Assembly: GCA_001466705.2 (NCBI GenBank)
Contig: LATX02000205.1
Location: forward strand, 372,001 to 436,000
Length of the DNA: 64,000 bases
Reading direction: 5' to 3'
Source: Moniliophthora roreri
Lineage: Eukaryota > Basidiomycota > Agaricomycetes > Agaricales > Marasmiaceae
Under the pieces are notes generated by a model, which saw only the letters and a program-made list of their open reading frames with translations, searched no databases and was not told where the DNA came from. Shown one piece after another: positions 51,256-60,412 of this stretch (positions within the stretch are counted from its first letter, which is position 1; each line of letters begins with the position of its first letter). A program made the translations under genes and the position numbers.

Positions 51256-51816
51256 ATGTCCGATTCTGCCAAAGTGTGTATTGTCTGTGAATACCTTGAG
51301 AAGCTGGACAAGGGCAACACCATTGGGGCCCACGCATATGTCACAGATGACTTCTCGCACAACCATAACACCAGCCCTGGTGCCCAAACTGCAAGCTATG
51401 CCGCTGGACCGTCTTTGAGCAAGGATGAACATCATCAAACTCATAAGGCAATCCACAACAACTTCCAGTCGGTTAAGGTGACTTGCTCTGCTTTTGTTCA
51501 GGATATCCCTCTTGACGATGATCCCCAGACTGTTGTTGATAGTGTCAAGGAGAGCAGAGGAAAGGTTCAAGTCCGCGTAAGTTGTTGTTGATACATCCCA
51601 AGTCCTGATTCTGATCGAGAATATAGGCAAAGACGCAATTTGAGCTTAAGGTCAAGTGCGTAAAATACTCAATCTCTTGATATGCCTCTGTATGAGAACT
51701 GAGCGCTGAAACACATGCTATTCAGGGAGGTTCCATTCACTGCGGAATACGAATTTGAAGGGGACAAGATTTCCACTGTTCATGTCAGTTCTGACAGCAG
51801 CTTCGTTTATGTTTGA
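51256..51816 (+). CDS. NTF2-like (SnoaL-type) protein of the borosin cluster
   Basis: Three exons (51256-51576, 51651-51655, 51726-51816) give 138 residues, the usual size of a single NTF2-like domain. The protein starts MSDSAKVCIVCEYLEKLDKG and has the typical YVTDDFSHNH after helix 1-2. It ends in curved-sheet strands (KVQVR, FTAEYEFEGDKIS). Introns have GTAAGT...TTAAG and GTGCGT...TTCAG borders. The 5-nt middle exon is unusual; a single longer intron with acceptor at 51729 also keeps the frame. NTF2-like proteins are cyclases, isomerases or binding folds in natural product pathways. An NTF2-like gene is, to my knowledge, also part of the omphalotin borosin cluster. Confidence 0.82.
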
Positions 51817-52539
51817 CCTCGTTGATGAAACGTCGGGAGTTTGGTTCTAAGTTTCGATACGGAAAATGACGAGAAACATAATGCCTTACCCTGTAACTTG
51901 TATATGAGAATGACTGTTTGATGCCGTATGGAATCATCTAAGATCCTGCAAGGGAGTTTAGTGATCAGATCAATCAGATCAATCAGACCTCAGAGTTCCG
52001 ATGTCAAAAAGCAGGAAAGTTGGAGCTAGTAGACTATCGTTCGGAATAACGGCATCGAGAATGCCGATTCGAAGCCATATCGCCGGTCTATAATCGAATC
52101 CGATCATTACCGGCGACCCAAATACCTCCATTTGCAGGTACGAACCACATGAGCATCCAGCCAAGGATTCACTCGAACTGAGTGGTAAGTACATCTTCTC
52201 CCTCATGCGTATGCAGCGCGATGGTATTGATACCACTTTTAGATAAACTAATACACAGTACGATTGCACATGACATCCATATACCCTCAAAAATCACCGG
52301 TTCACACGTACCTGGTGTCCACAGATAATGAATCCGGTCTTACTTCTATTCTGCTGTCACCCATCTAGCATACGGGGTGCAGATCTCAGATACGAATAAG
52401 AACATTGGTCAAACCCCCAATCTCTCTTTTCTTCCTTGAGGACAAACCAGAACAAAGTACAGCGTGCGGGTAAGATAGATTTGAATTGTGCTTTCTACAA
52501 GAAATAAGAGCATGTGCATTTTGAGTGTGACACTAGATC
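51817..52539. other. Intergenic region, likely monooxygenase promoter
   Basis: No gene was recognised. A short tandem repeat (ATCAGATCA units) lies near 51962-51990. Confidence 0.5.
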
Positions 52540-57576: not shown

Positions 57577-58260
57577 AGACTATTGTCTTCATCTCAAGCT
57601 CTCTCGCACGGATTACAACAGAAAAATGGCGATCGTGTTGAGGCTAAAGGACGAGTAGGTTGACATCGCTCAGAGTCGGAGTTTGAATCGGTTCCCGGTG
57701 ACTATCTCAAACGTGGACATGACACGGCTCCCAGCCTGCGTAAGCTTTACATACATAACCTTTTCTTCTACTTCAACCGGGGGCACTCTCACTGCAATTA
57801 CACTTGCTGGGACATGAATTTGGGTGCTACTTGGAGCCGGTCACTCTTCTGGGTCGTTCCTGTGGCTTCCCACAGTCGATGGTCCATCTTCTGATCGTTC
57901 GGTGCGTTCCTTTTTCACACACGTAGTCTAATGACATGTAGTGCTCTTTTCTGTAGTAGCCGGTCGGCATTCTTCCTGTCAGATTGCAAGCGAGATGATG
58001 AATCTCAAAGTCAATTGGTTCGTCGGTCTTTCATTCTTTTCACCGATTTCTATTCTGATTCTTCATTAAATATAGTCGGCTGTAAGGCGTATCACTGCGC
58101 AGTCACAAGGTCAACAAGTGGCTTCATATTCGACACGGCTGTCCAGGTCTAGCCAAAAGCTCCGTCATCTTGAGAACCCCTTCTTTCAACGTGGCAACGT
58201 GGGAGCGTTTCGCTAGACATTCATGCTTGCTTTCCTCCCTCTCCCTCCATTCTTTCTCCG
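57577..58260. other. Intergenic region, likely P450 promoter
   Basis: No convincing gene is present. A pyrimidine-rich run at 58225-58258 directly precedes the P450 ATG, which is common for fungal transcription start regions. Confidence 0.5.
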
Positions 58261-60412
58261 ATGGAATCCTTCATGTCGACTTTCTTCCCATCATATCTTT
58301 TTCCTCTCCCTCTTTTGTTTGTGGCATGCGCAATCATCTACAGAATTGTGCGGGGGTGCATTCATCCCGATCGTGGGCCACGACTTTATCCTCCAGGTCC
58401 CAAGCCGAAAAGACTCCTCGGAAACTTGCTTGATTATCCCGAGAAGAACGCTGCCGAAACCTATCGTCAATGGGGAAAAATCTACCACAGTAAGCCAACT
58501 TGACCTGTCAGTGTCTCATCTTTTGGCAATTAATTTTTTCTCCAGGTAACATTCTTTTCACTACGGCTCTGCAAAGACACACTGTTATTCTCAACAATCT
58601 TCGCGATGGAGACGAACTTCTTGGAAAGCGGTCCCGCTTGTACTCTGATCGGCCGGTCGTCCCAATGCTCGAAATGTGGGGCATGTTATTCTTCTGAAGG
58701 CACTAAGTCTAACACTTGGTATCTGAAGGATTGGCTGGGATTATAACATGTCGACGTTCCATTACGAAGAGCGTTGGCGTCGACACAGAAAAGTCTGTCA
58801 ACAGAACTTTGGACCAGAAGCTGTGAAAGCCTACTACCCCATTCTAACGTGCAAAGTTCATGAGCTCATGTCGGAATTGTTCTCCAGCCCAGATGACTTT
58901 GAAACGCATAGCAGAAAGTCAGTTTTTCGGTATACTTTAGTAACACTCTCTGTATGCTAATTCTACGCTATTGAGGCTATCTCTCGCTATTCCAATGGCC
59001 ACCATGTTCGGGTACGACATTGACTCTGTTGACGATCCCTGTATCGTACCTGCGAATACCGCTCTGAGTCTCGCTGAGAACGTCATGTCCGAACCGATGT
59101 CGGCGCTTGCGAACTTCTTTCCAATTATACGATTTATTGCTGGTCCTGGCTTTAGAAAGCGAGTAGACAAGGTTCGCCAAGCTACCGCAGAAATGAAGCG
59201 CTTGCCAATCGAATTTGTCACGAAGAATGTTGTAAGGGATTCTGAATTTTTCGTTATCGTCTGTCCCTTGTAATTTACCAGCTTCTTTTCAGTCGGATGG
59301 CACGGCAACGTATTCCCTCCTCTCGGATTTCTTGCAAAAAAAGTTGAGTTCTGGCGCGACTCCCGTAGAGGAAGAAGCTGTGAGGAATGTCGCATACACA
59401 GTATATGGAGGCAAGTCACTTGAGATGCCTATTTGCTTACTTATTTATTGATGGTGATAAAAAGCCGGTTCTGATACAGTGCGTCTCGACAATGTTTCCA
59501 CATACAGGCAGTTGAAACGTCAAAACACAGACACATTCTGCAACAGTTACCTTTTTCTATCTCATGGCGGTCAATCCTGGTGTCCAGCGGAGAGCTCAAG
59601 AAGAGATCGACCAGATCATAGGTCGTCACCGATTCCCAGAGTTTGAGGATCGTCCCTTGATGCCGTACATAGAGGCTATCTACCGAGAAGTCCTTCGATG
59701 GAAACCGCCTGTTCCGCTAGGCGTTCCACATTGCCTGACTGAGGACGACTTTTGCAATGAATACTTTATCCCCAAAGGTTGGCGATAACTGAATGCTTGG
59801 GCGCTTTTACATTAACATTCTCATTAGGGACAACGGTGTTCGCCAATATTTGGGCGATGACGAGAGACGAAGGGCTTTACCCAAACGCGAATCAATTTCT
59901 CCCCGAGCGTTTCTTTGACCAGGATGGACAGTTGAATGACGACAATCGAGTGCTAGCGTATGGATTTGGACGAAGGTGATCTGAACTTTCGGATACTGGA
60001 TAGCATGCTAACGACAAATTCAGAGCTTGTGCTGGAAAGCACGTCGCTAGTTCAACGGTGAGGAAGTTCAAATAGCAATCTACATACTAAAACGCAGTCC
60101 CAATACCATATAGTTGTGGCTGCTTATCGCATCGACTTTGGCCTTATTCAAGATAGATAGGGCGAAGAATGATCGAGGTGAGGAAATTCGGATCAAGGAT
60201 GACTATATTGAGCGCGGTGCATTGGTGTAAGCTTTTTCCTTCACATTCTTCACATTGATACCCTTGACTGATTGTACATCGCATCAACAAACTACAGACA
60301 CAAGGCACCGTTCCGATGTTCATTCATGCCTCGGTCAGATGAAGCGGAGCGTTTAGTACACGAACTCAACCTTTCTACTGCACCTAGCTCTGTGAAGACC
60401 TCCCTTGAATGA
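58261..60412 (+). CDS. Cytochrome P450 monooxygenase, 530 aa, 11 exons
   Basis: The exons are 58261-58489, 58546-58675, 58729-58917, 58976-59231, 59293-59410, 59465-59478, 59531-59777, 59828-59975, 60024-60057, 60114-60226 and 60298-60412. They sum to 531 codons. An N-terminal hydrophobic anchor (about residues 8-27) and the proline hinge YPPGPKPKRLLGN place it on the ER membrane. The I-helix AGSDTT spans the 14-nt exon, the K-helix ExxR is EVLR, PERF is present, and the heme loop YGFGRRACAGKHVA carries the Cys ligand. Intron 59411-59464 starts with GC instead of GT. The architecture is like basidiomycete secondary-metabolite P450s. The position next to the borosin gene suggests oxidation of the peptide. 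Confidence 0.95.

What the first reader, a model, noticed from the sequence alone, without database searches (positions are those of the whole stretch)
51256..60412. Probable borosin RiPP gene cluster with an NTF2-like protein, FAD monooxygenase, precursor methyltransferase and P450
Four adjacent plus-strand genes combine a borosin-type self-methylating precursor with two oxygenases of different chemistry and an NTF2-like protein. From established knowledge, the omphalotin cluster pairs its precursor with P450-type oxygenases and an NTF2-like protein. A PHOX-type FAD monooxygenase next to the precursor is not something I recall from characterised borosin clusters. The product would be an N-methylated Val/Ile-rich peptide with oxidative tailoring. 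That the genes act together is inferred from clustering and strand.
Basis: partly seen in the sequence, partly recalled or inferred. Interest (0 to 1): 0.93.

Follow-up and report, generated by a model that had tools for sequence, protein, structure and literature searches.

The report
Broken borosin gene beside intact oxygenases
In the cacao pathogen Moniliophthora roreri, a gene for a self-methylating peptide has lost its front end and looks dead at this spot, while a flavin oxygenase next to it may be a real evolutionary partner of such peptides and an apparently complete copy of the peptide gene survives elsewhere in the genome.

Summary
Four plus-strand genes lie at the stated place, but the central claim fails here: the borosin gene is a relic. 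Against an apparently complete copy in the same genome (contig C100) it lacks about 250 bp carrying the promoter-proximal region, start codon and first ~65 codons, and its frame and a splice site are damaged. A ~650-bp dispersed repeat lies just upstream. The database protein for it (P0001) has an unrelated N-terminus and no Pfam hit.

The FAD monooxygenase (543 aa, 9 exons) and P450 (530 aa, 11 exons) look intact. "NTF2-like" is unproven: a 146-aa protein with homologues found only in Moniliophthora.

In Gymnopilus junonius the closest borosin and closest FAD homologue are on contigs of the same length, 249,605 bp, so almost surely one contig. The FAD enzyme sits in a clade of five genera that all appear in the borosin list. 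Both gene trees pair Pleurotus pulmonarius with Sanghuangporus, across orders. Against this, the wider borosin tree agrees only in part.

Best reading: a decayed borosin locus whose tailoring enzymes outlived their neighbouring precursor and may serve the C100 copy. That last step is inferred.

The parts
51256..51816 (+).
   Evidence: Model. No Pfam family above cut-off. Homologues at E<=1e-3: P0121 (M. roreri MCA 2997) and P0122 (M. perniciosa) only. Single copy in the genome. Structure predictions uninformative.
52540..54617 (+). FAD-dependent (group A, PHOX-like) monooxygenase, 9 exons, 543 aa, apparently intact
   Evidence: Model. PF01494 E 1.9e-60. 100% identical to P0123; best homologue outside the genus P0124 of Gymnopilus junonius, 63%. 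PDB relatives RdmE, GrhO5, PgaE, phenol hydroxylase.
55078..55725 (.). Dispersed repeat (about 650 bp, probably a non-autonomous mobile element) just upstream of the remaining 5' flank of the borosin relic
   Evidence: Search with a 1231-bp query that contains it gave 33 matches in the genome, the window itself included; those inside the repeat are 70-98% identical. No long terminal inverted repeat found.
55724..55861 (+). Remaining 5' flank of the borosin gene, joined directly to the interior of the coding region because about 250 bp are missing
   Evidence: blastn 55724-55870 to C100:202014-202147 and 55873-57367 to C100:202402-203934; base-level alignment; same junction in C74 copies.
55848..57077 (+). 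Borosin-type precursor/methyltransferase gene, a relic: 5' end missing, frame broken in the third exon, a splice acceptor that C100 keeps is changed; C-terminal core-like end AFVGLVVIIAVVV still readable
   Evidence: The database model P0001 has a non-homologous N-terminus and no Pfam hit at E<=0.01.
58261..60412 (+). Cytochrome P450, 11 exons (one GC-AG intron), 530 aa, apparently intact
   Evidence: Model; PF00067 E 1.2e-75; no close paralogue seen in the genome, other fragments being at most 63% identical (which scored 81 of 467 candidates).

Best explanation
The locus is the decayed remainder of a borosin gene cluster in Moniliophthora roreri. The fused methyltransferase-precursor gene here is dead: a deletion took its promoter-proximal region, start codon and the first stretch of the methyltransferase fold, and further damage broke frame and splicing (shown by sequence). 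The FAD monooxygenase beside it is probably an old partner of this borosin subgroup, because both genes share the same closest relative, on what is almost surely one contig, in Gymnopilus junonius, and show the same cross-order pairing elsewhere (shown as association; function inferred). The monooxygenase and the P450 remain intact and may oxidise a peptide whose working precursor now lies elsewhere in the genome, at C100 (inferred). In that precursor the N-terminal domain would N-methylate its own C-terminal core, as OphMA does (inferred from family).
For: Relic: of the 9 proteins tried on C100, the 6 that carry the family N-terminus find it there (e.g. P0010 residues 6-80 at 79%); of the 8 tried on the window, the 3 that carry it do not (the only N-terminal match, P0007, has E 9). 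Alignment with C100 shows about 250 bp missing plus a frame break. P0001 has no Pfam hit, while the C100 protein passes PF00590 (34.1 against 27.8 bits). PDB matches begin at chain residue 57-64 for the relic but at 1-7 for C100. The same junction is in C74 fragments. Core-bearing exon of the window relic against C74: dN/dS-like ratio 0.66-0.83, not different from neutral. Partnership: P0004 (borosin) and P0124 (FAD) of G. junonius are both listed on a contig of 249,605 bp. FAD tree of 40 of the 120 listed proteins: 8 split from 32 at 100/100; within the 8, M. roreri + G. junonius (100/99) and P. pulmonarius + Sanghuangporus (100/100). Borosin tree of 42 rows: Moniliophthora + G. junonius (100/100) and P. 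pulmonarius + S. baumii (100/99). Identities for these two pairs are 74/65 and 65/62 (borosin/FAD), against 44-52 for the other 8 of 10 pairs. Pleurotus is in Agaricales, Sanghuangporus in Hymenochaetales. All 5 genera of the clade are in the borosin list, against 6 of 42 other genera of the FAD list (Fisher p 3e-4, or 1.3e-3 without Moniliophthora). Intact enzymes. Last FAD exon, window against C74: ratio 0.27-0.32 (p 0.0003-0.0015). C100 copy: last 15 residues identical to those of M. perniciosa P0002, 93% identical overall.
Against: In the borosin tree the two pairs sit in different parts: Moniliophthora/Gymnopilus next to Rhizopogon (88/89), P. pulmonarius/S. baumii with Armillaria and Lentinula edodes (91/68), and a second Sanghuangporus borosin (P0041) elsewhere with Fomitiporia. 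The FAD proteins of Armillaria and Lentinula in the FAD tree lie outside the clade. So the two trees agree only in part. In S. baumii the borosin (contig 397,699) and the FAD protein (407,201) are listed on different contigs. The G. junonius borosin model P0004 (334 aa) also starts without the N-terminus, so that copy may be incomplete or misannotated. Exon 2 of the window relic against the C74 relic shows fewer amino-acid changes than neutral (7 against 9 synonymous, ratio 0.23-0.29, p 0.004-0.02 for one C74 copy; 0.29-0.37, p 0.03-0.10 for the other), which a long-dead gene does not explain. The C100 region has no FAD, P450 or orphan-gene similarity within 40 kb either side, so a link in trans rests on reasoning alone. 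The first-intron splice sites of C100 are unusual, so its function is not proven. The genus-level co-occurrence uses truncated lists and related taxa.
Confidence: 0.75

Rival explanations
1. The FAD monooxygenase and P450 belong to an unrelated pathway; the borosin copy landed beside them by duplication and their closeness means nothing.
For: The region is rich in mobile elements; borosin copies moved around this genome (C74, C100); the C100 copy has no such neighbours; S. baumii lists the two genes on different contigs; the borosin and FAD trees agree only in part.
Against: Same-length contig in G. junonius; the same two pairings in both gene trees, one across orders; 5 of 5 against 6 of 42 genera.
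Confidence: 0.25
2. The window's borosin gene still makes something: a shortened protein from an internal start, whose core is methylated by the C100 enzyme in trans, as in split borosins.
For: The C-terminal core-like end is still readable, and exon 2 shows below-neutral amino-acid change between relics. Split borosins with separate precursor and enzyme exist (PMC11395268, passages).
Against: No start region, a frame broken before the core, and a changed splice site. The core-bearing exon evolves near-neutrally. The C-terminal end differs from the one shared by C100 and M. perniciosa.
Confidence: 0.07
3. The missing 5' end and frame break are assembly errors and the locus is a normal borosin cluster.
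For: Only one assembly of this locus was read here; the N-terminus is the only large part missing.
Against: The same 5' junction recurs in fragments on C74, and a protein from another M. roreri assembly (P0005, strain MCA 2997, on a 21,341-bp contig) of the C74 type also lacks the N-terminus.
Confidence: 0.03

Closest known systems
Fused fungal borosin precursors (OphMA, dbOphMA, MroMA1/2)
   Same: Homologous over the retained part of the methyltransferase and the following domain, with a hydrophobic core-like C-terminus
   Different: This copy lacks the N-terminal part of the methyltransferase and its frame is broken; the C100 copy fits the family and ends within or at the core-like stretch, with no clear follower (core limits inferred)
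Omphalotin (oph), lentinulin and dendrothelin clusters
   Same: A borosin gene with monooxygenase genes nearby; these clusters are described as carrying monooxygenases, O-acyltransferases and a prolyl oligopeptidase (PMC7878506, passages)
   Different: Here the precursor is dead, an FAD monooxygenase is adjacent, and no prolyl oligopeptidase or acyltransferase was seen among the 71 of 97 window ORFs scanned (exon-level search is weak)
Group A FAD monooxygenases (phenol hydroxylase, RdmE, PgaE, rifampicin monooxygenase)
   Same: PF01494 fold, similar length, nearest solved structures RdmE and a 2-polyprenyl-6-methoxyphenol-hydroxylase-like enzyme, then GrhO5
   Different: Sits in its own fungal clade of five genera that all appear in the borosin list; C-terminal PF07976 below cut-off
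Split borosins (type IV and others)
   Same: If the C100 enzyme and the window oxygenases act together, precursor and tailoring genes are separated
   Different: Split borosins separate the methyltransferase from the precursor (PMC11395268, passages); here they are fused and only the tailoring genes are apart

Membership tests
[quoted passage not shown]
   Missing by alignment to C100 and to relatives; P0001 has no Pfam hit
Fused fungal borosin precursor (window copy) | Core peptide at the C-terminus of the same open reading frame | tested here: not met
   Core-like end present, but the frame is broken upstream of it
Fused fungal borosin precursor (C100 copy) | Complete methyltransferase domain and C-terminal core in one frame | tested here: met
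   PF00590 34.1 bits; PDB match over 404 residues to MroMA2; caveat: the first-intron junction is assumed
Fused fungal borosin precursor | Autocatalytic backbone N-methylation | not testable with these tools
   Needs mass spectrometry
Omphalotin-type cluster | P450 near the precursor (recalled) | tested here: met
   58261-60412, PF00067; whether it is an OphB orthologue was not tested
Omphalotin-type cluster | NTF2-like protein (recalled) | tested here: inconclusive
   No Pfam hit, orphan, structure models at pLDDT 38
Omphalotin-type cluster | Prolyl oligopeptidase (OphP-like) | tested here: inconclusive
   No PF02897 match in the genome, 18 PF00326 matches. The exon-level PF00590 search also missed the window, C74 and C100 borosin loci, so the negative is weak
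PHOX-type FAD monooxygenase | FAD_binding_3 domain (PF01494) | tested here: met
   205 bits against cut-off 22
PHOX-type FAD monooxygenase | C-terminal Phe_hydrox_dim domain (PF07976) | tested here: not met
   13.6 bits against cut-off 24.9; some other listed homologues carry it
Cytochrome P450 | PF00067 with haem-binding cysteine motif | tested here: met
   255.5 bits; FGRRACAG and AGSDTT visible in the translation; motif names recalled

The most novel reading that the evidence does not exclude
A PHOX-like FAD monooxygenase is a co-inherited tailoring enzyme of a borosin subgroup and moved with it between fungal orders (at least in the Moniliophthora/Gymnopilus and Pleurotus/Sanghuangporus lineages). 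In M. roreri the pathway has been split by reciprocal decay: intact oxygenases with a dead precursor at one locus, an intact precursor without oxygenases at another, working together in trans.
Probability: 0.27. Interest if true: 0.7.

Novelty: new variant of a known kind. Interest (0 to 1): 0.47.

Why it matters
A flavin monooxygenase that travels with borosin genes would point to a modification of these peptides that none of the papers seen here describes, and would give a genomic handle for finding such clusters. The locus also shows how a peptide cluster can be broken up next to mobile elements, and it warns that database proteins for these M. roreri genes (P0001, P0003) are artificial joins, while the apparently complete C100 copy has no protein among the 120 hits listed.

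Tried and rejected
A working precursor in the window: rejected after comparison with C100, C74 and relatives (8 proteins, 9).

An upstream exon carrying the missing N-terminus: not found by tblastn of the three tried proteins that have it (P0007, P0018, P0026) over the whole window. Spliced transcripts could not be checked.

NTF2-like fold: two predictions (P0121 with P0122; first exon alone) gave mean pLDDT 38, so no fold search was made.

Other tailoring genes: Pfam on 71 of 97 window ORFs of at least 95 aa (24 of the 26 left out lie at 51106-59288, on or across the four genes) found only retroelement domains. On 129 of 136 ORFs of at least 85 aa in C100:182001-222000 it found DUF2855, peptidase C12, questin-oxidase-like, a copia gag and a GH5.

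A tblastn of P0124 against plasmids was uninformative (bacterial matches, best about 33%). Of three dN/dS runs the first had wrong frames for three of four borosin pieces and is discarded; replace it.

Literature: 9 searches of the open PMC library only. No paper holds both Moniliophthora and borosin; one review holds both Gymnopilus junonius and borosin (listing only); no paper on an FAD monooxygenase in a borosin cluster was seen in the listings. I did not try to open Quijano 2019, van der Velden 2017 or Ramm 2017; what I say of OphC and OphB is recalled. Papers were seen as passages only (PMC7878506, PMC9258550, PMC9233826, PMC12235650, PMC11395268, PMC10468315, PMC12048977).
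Full report
What is there. The window is contig C104:372001-436000 of a 59.4-Mb genome in 154 contigs. The database protein of this locus, P0001, is from Moniliophthora roreri on a contig of 440,155 bp, the length of C104, so the source is M. roreri, a cacao pathogen. Four plus-strand genes lie at 51256-60412: a small orphan (51256-51816), an FAD monooxygenase (52540-54617, 9 exons), a borosin-type sequence (about 55848-57077) and a P450 (58261-60412, 11 exons). 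The surroundings hold many repeats and retroelement remains.

The borosin gene is a relic. phmmer of the retained part against the PDB matches 25 sequences at E<=1e-3, listed as MroMA, dbOphMA, OphA, peptide N-methyltransferase or TP-methylase/SonM, best at 3.2e-90, but the matches start at chain residue 57-64. Three relatives that carry the N-terminus find none in the window. An apparently complete copy lies at C100:202197-203598: its protein matches MroMA2 from chain residue 4, passes the PF00590 cut-off, and its last 15 residues are identical to those of M. perniciosa P0002 (93% overall). Alignment of the two copies shows that the window copy lacks about 250 bp spanning the promoter-proximal region, start codon and first ~65 codons, has a frame break in the third exon and a changed splice acceptor. 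A ~650-bp dispersed repeat lies just upstream of the remaining 5' flank. P0001 starts with unrelated upstream sequence, needs a pseudo-intron of about 22 nt at the frame break and has no Pfam hit.

History of the copies. C74:95959-103258 (minus strand) holds tandem fragments of the same relic with the same 5' junction, joined to the 3' half of the FAD gene at 94% identity. So the deletion most simply preceded a segmental duplication of the FAD-borosin unit. Between window and C74 relics the core-bearing exon evolves near-neutrally (ratio 0.66-0.83), the first part of exon 3 is at 0.43-0.61 (not significant), whereas exon 2 is below neutral for one C74 copy (0.23-0.29, p 0.004-0.02) and borderline for the other (0.29-0.37, p 0.03-0.10); counts are small and I cannot explain this. 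C100 against the window gives 0.41-0.51 (p 0.0004-0.009), as expected if part of the divergence came before the loss. The C100 region has no similarity to the FAD gene, the P450 or the orphan within the 80 kb read.

The oxygenases. The FAD protein has PF01494 at 205 bits, but its C-terminal phenol-hydroxylase domain is under cut-off. Its nearest solved structures include RdmE, GrhO5 and other group A hydroxylases. It is 100% identical to P0123 of strain MCA 2997, whose contig length (14,171 bp) equals that of the orphan P0121, so the orphan-FAD neighbourhood recurs in a second assembly. The P450 is intact by sequence and no close paralogue was seen.

Is the FAD enzyme a borosin partner? The closest non-Moniliophthora borosin, P0004, and the closest FAD homologue, P0124, are both from Gymnopilus junonius and both listed on a contig of 249,605 bp. 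In a tree of 40 of the 120 listed FAD proteins, chosen by hand, M. roreri and G. junonius pair (100/99) inside an 8-protein group (split from the other 32 at 100/100) with Pleurotus pulmonarius, Sanghuangporus and Ceratobasidium, away from the M. roreri paralogue P0215, which sits with Marasmius. In a borosin tree of 42 rows the pairs Moniliophthora-Gymnopilus (100/100) and P. pulmonarius-S. baumii (100/99) recur. Moniliophthora, Gymnopilus and Pleurotus are in Agaricales, Sanghuangporus in Hymenochaetales, Ceratobasidium in Cantharellales. Pairwise identities of borosin/FAD are 74/65 and 65/62 for these two pairs and 44-52 for the other eight (Spearman 0.67, p 0.03, ten non-independent pairs; S. 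sanghuang FAD stood in for S. baumii, and two different Ceratobasidium strains were paired). All 5 genera of the group are in the borosin list, against 6 of 42 other genera; for S. sanghuang and for Ceratobasidium sp. AG-I and 370 this is a genus-level match only, and genera absent from the tree were counted as outside the group.

Against the partnership. The two pairs lie in different parts of the borosin tree, one near Rhizopogon, the other near Armillaria and Lentinula edodes, and a second Sanghuangporus borosin lies elsewhere, while Armillaria and Lentinula FAD proteins fall outside the FAD group. S. baumii lists the two genes on different contigs. The G. junonius model P0004 itself starts without the N-terminus. 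Both homologue lists were cut at 120 rows (of 171 and 486).

How it most likely works. In the family, the N-terminal domain methylates the backbone of its own C-terminal core (PMC7878506, passages). Here that enzyme is gone. The intact oxygenases either decay behind it, serve another pathway, or modify the product of the C100 precursor. I favour the last weakly, because the FAD association looks old and the enzymes are intact; no expression data were available.

What remains open. The orphan gene may have an NTF2-like layout, but no tool showed it. The C100 copy has unusual first-intron splice sites. The search for a prolyl oligopeptidase was negative but weak, since the same exon-level method missed the three borosin loci.

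Noticed in passing
G000 C100:202197-203598 (L004, L020): Apparently complete borosin precursor gene ending AFLSAVVIATIIIAL, with no matching protein among the 120 homologue hits listed; in its wider region (C100:182001-222000) are DUF2855, questin-oxidase-like, peptidase C12 and GH5 ORFs.
   Followed up: partly
Database proteins P0001, P0003, P0005: M. roreri 'uroporphyrin-III C methyltransferase' models are artificial joins of unrelated or repeat-derived upstream sequence and borosin fragments.
   Followed up: yes
window 55078-55725: A ~650-bp dispersed repeat with relatives on many contigs at 70-98% identity, open to classification.
   Followed up: partly
G000 C67:561-600 kb, C129:217-231 kb, C149:67-144 kb: Local groups of further FAD monooxygenase paralogues (exons mostly 33-41% identical to the window's).
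   Followed up: no
window 56018-56323 against C74 copies: Exon 2 of relics that share the same 5' deletion shows fewer amino-acid changes than neutral (7 against 9 synonymous for one copy), unexplained.
   Followed up: partly
window 1-50000: Copia-type retroelement remains; many segments also occur on C74 and some on C100.
   Followed up: no
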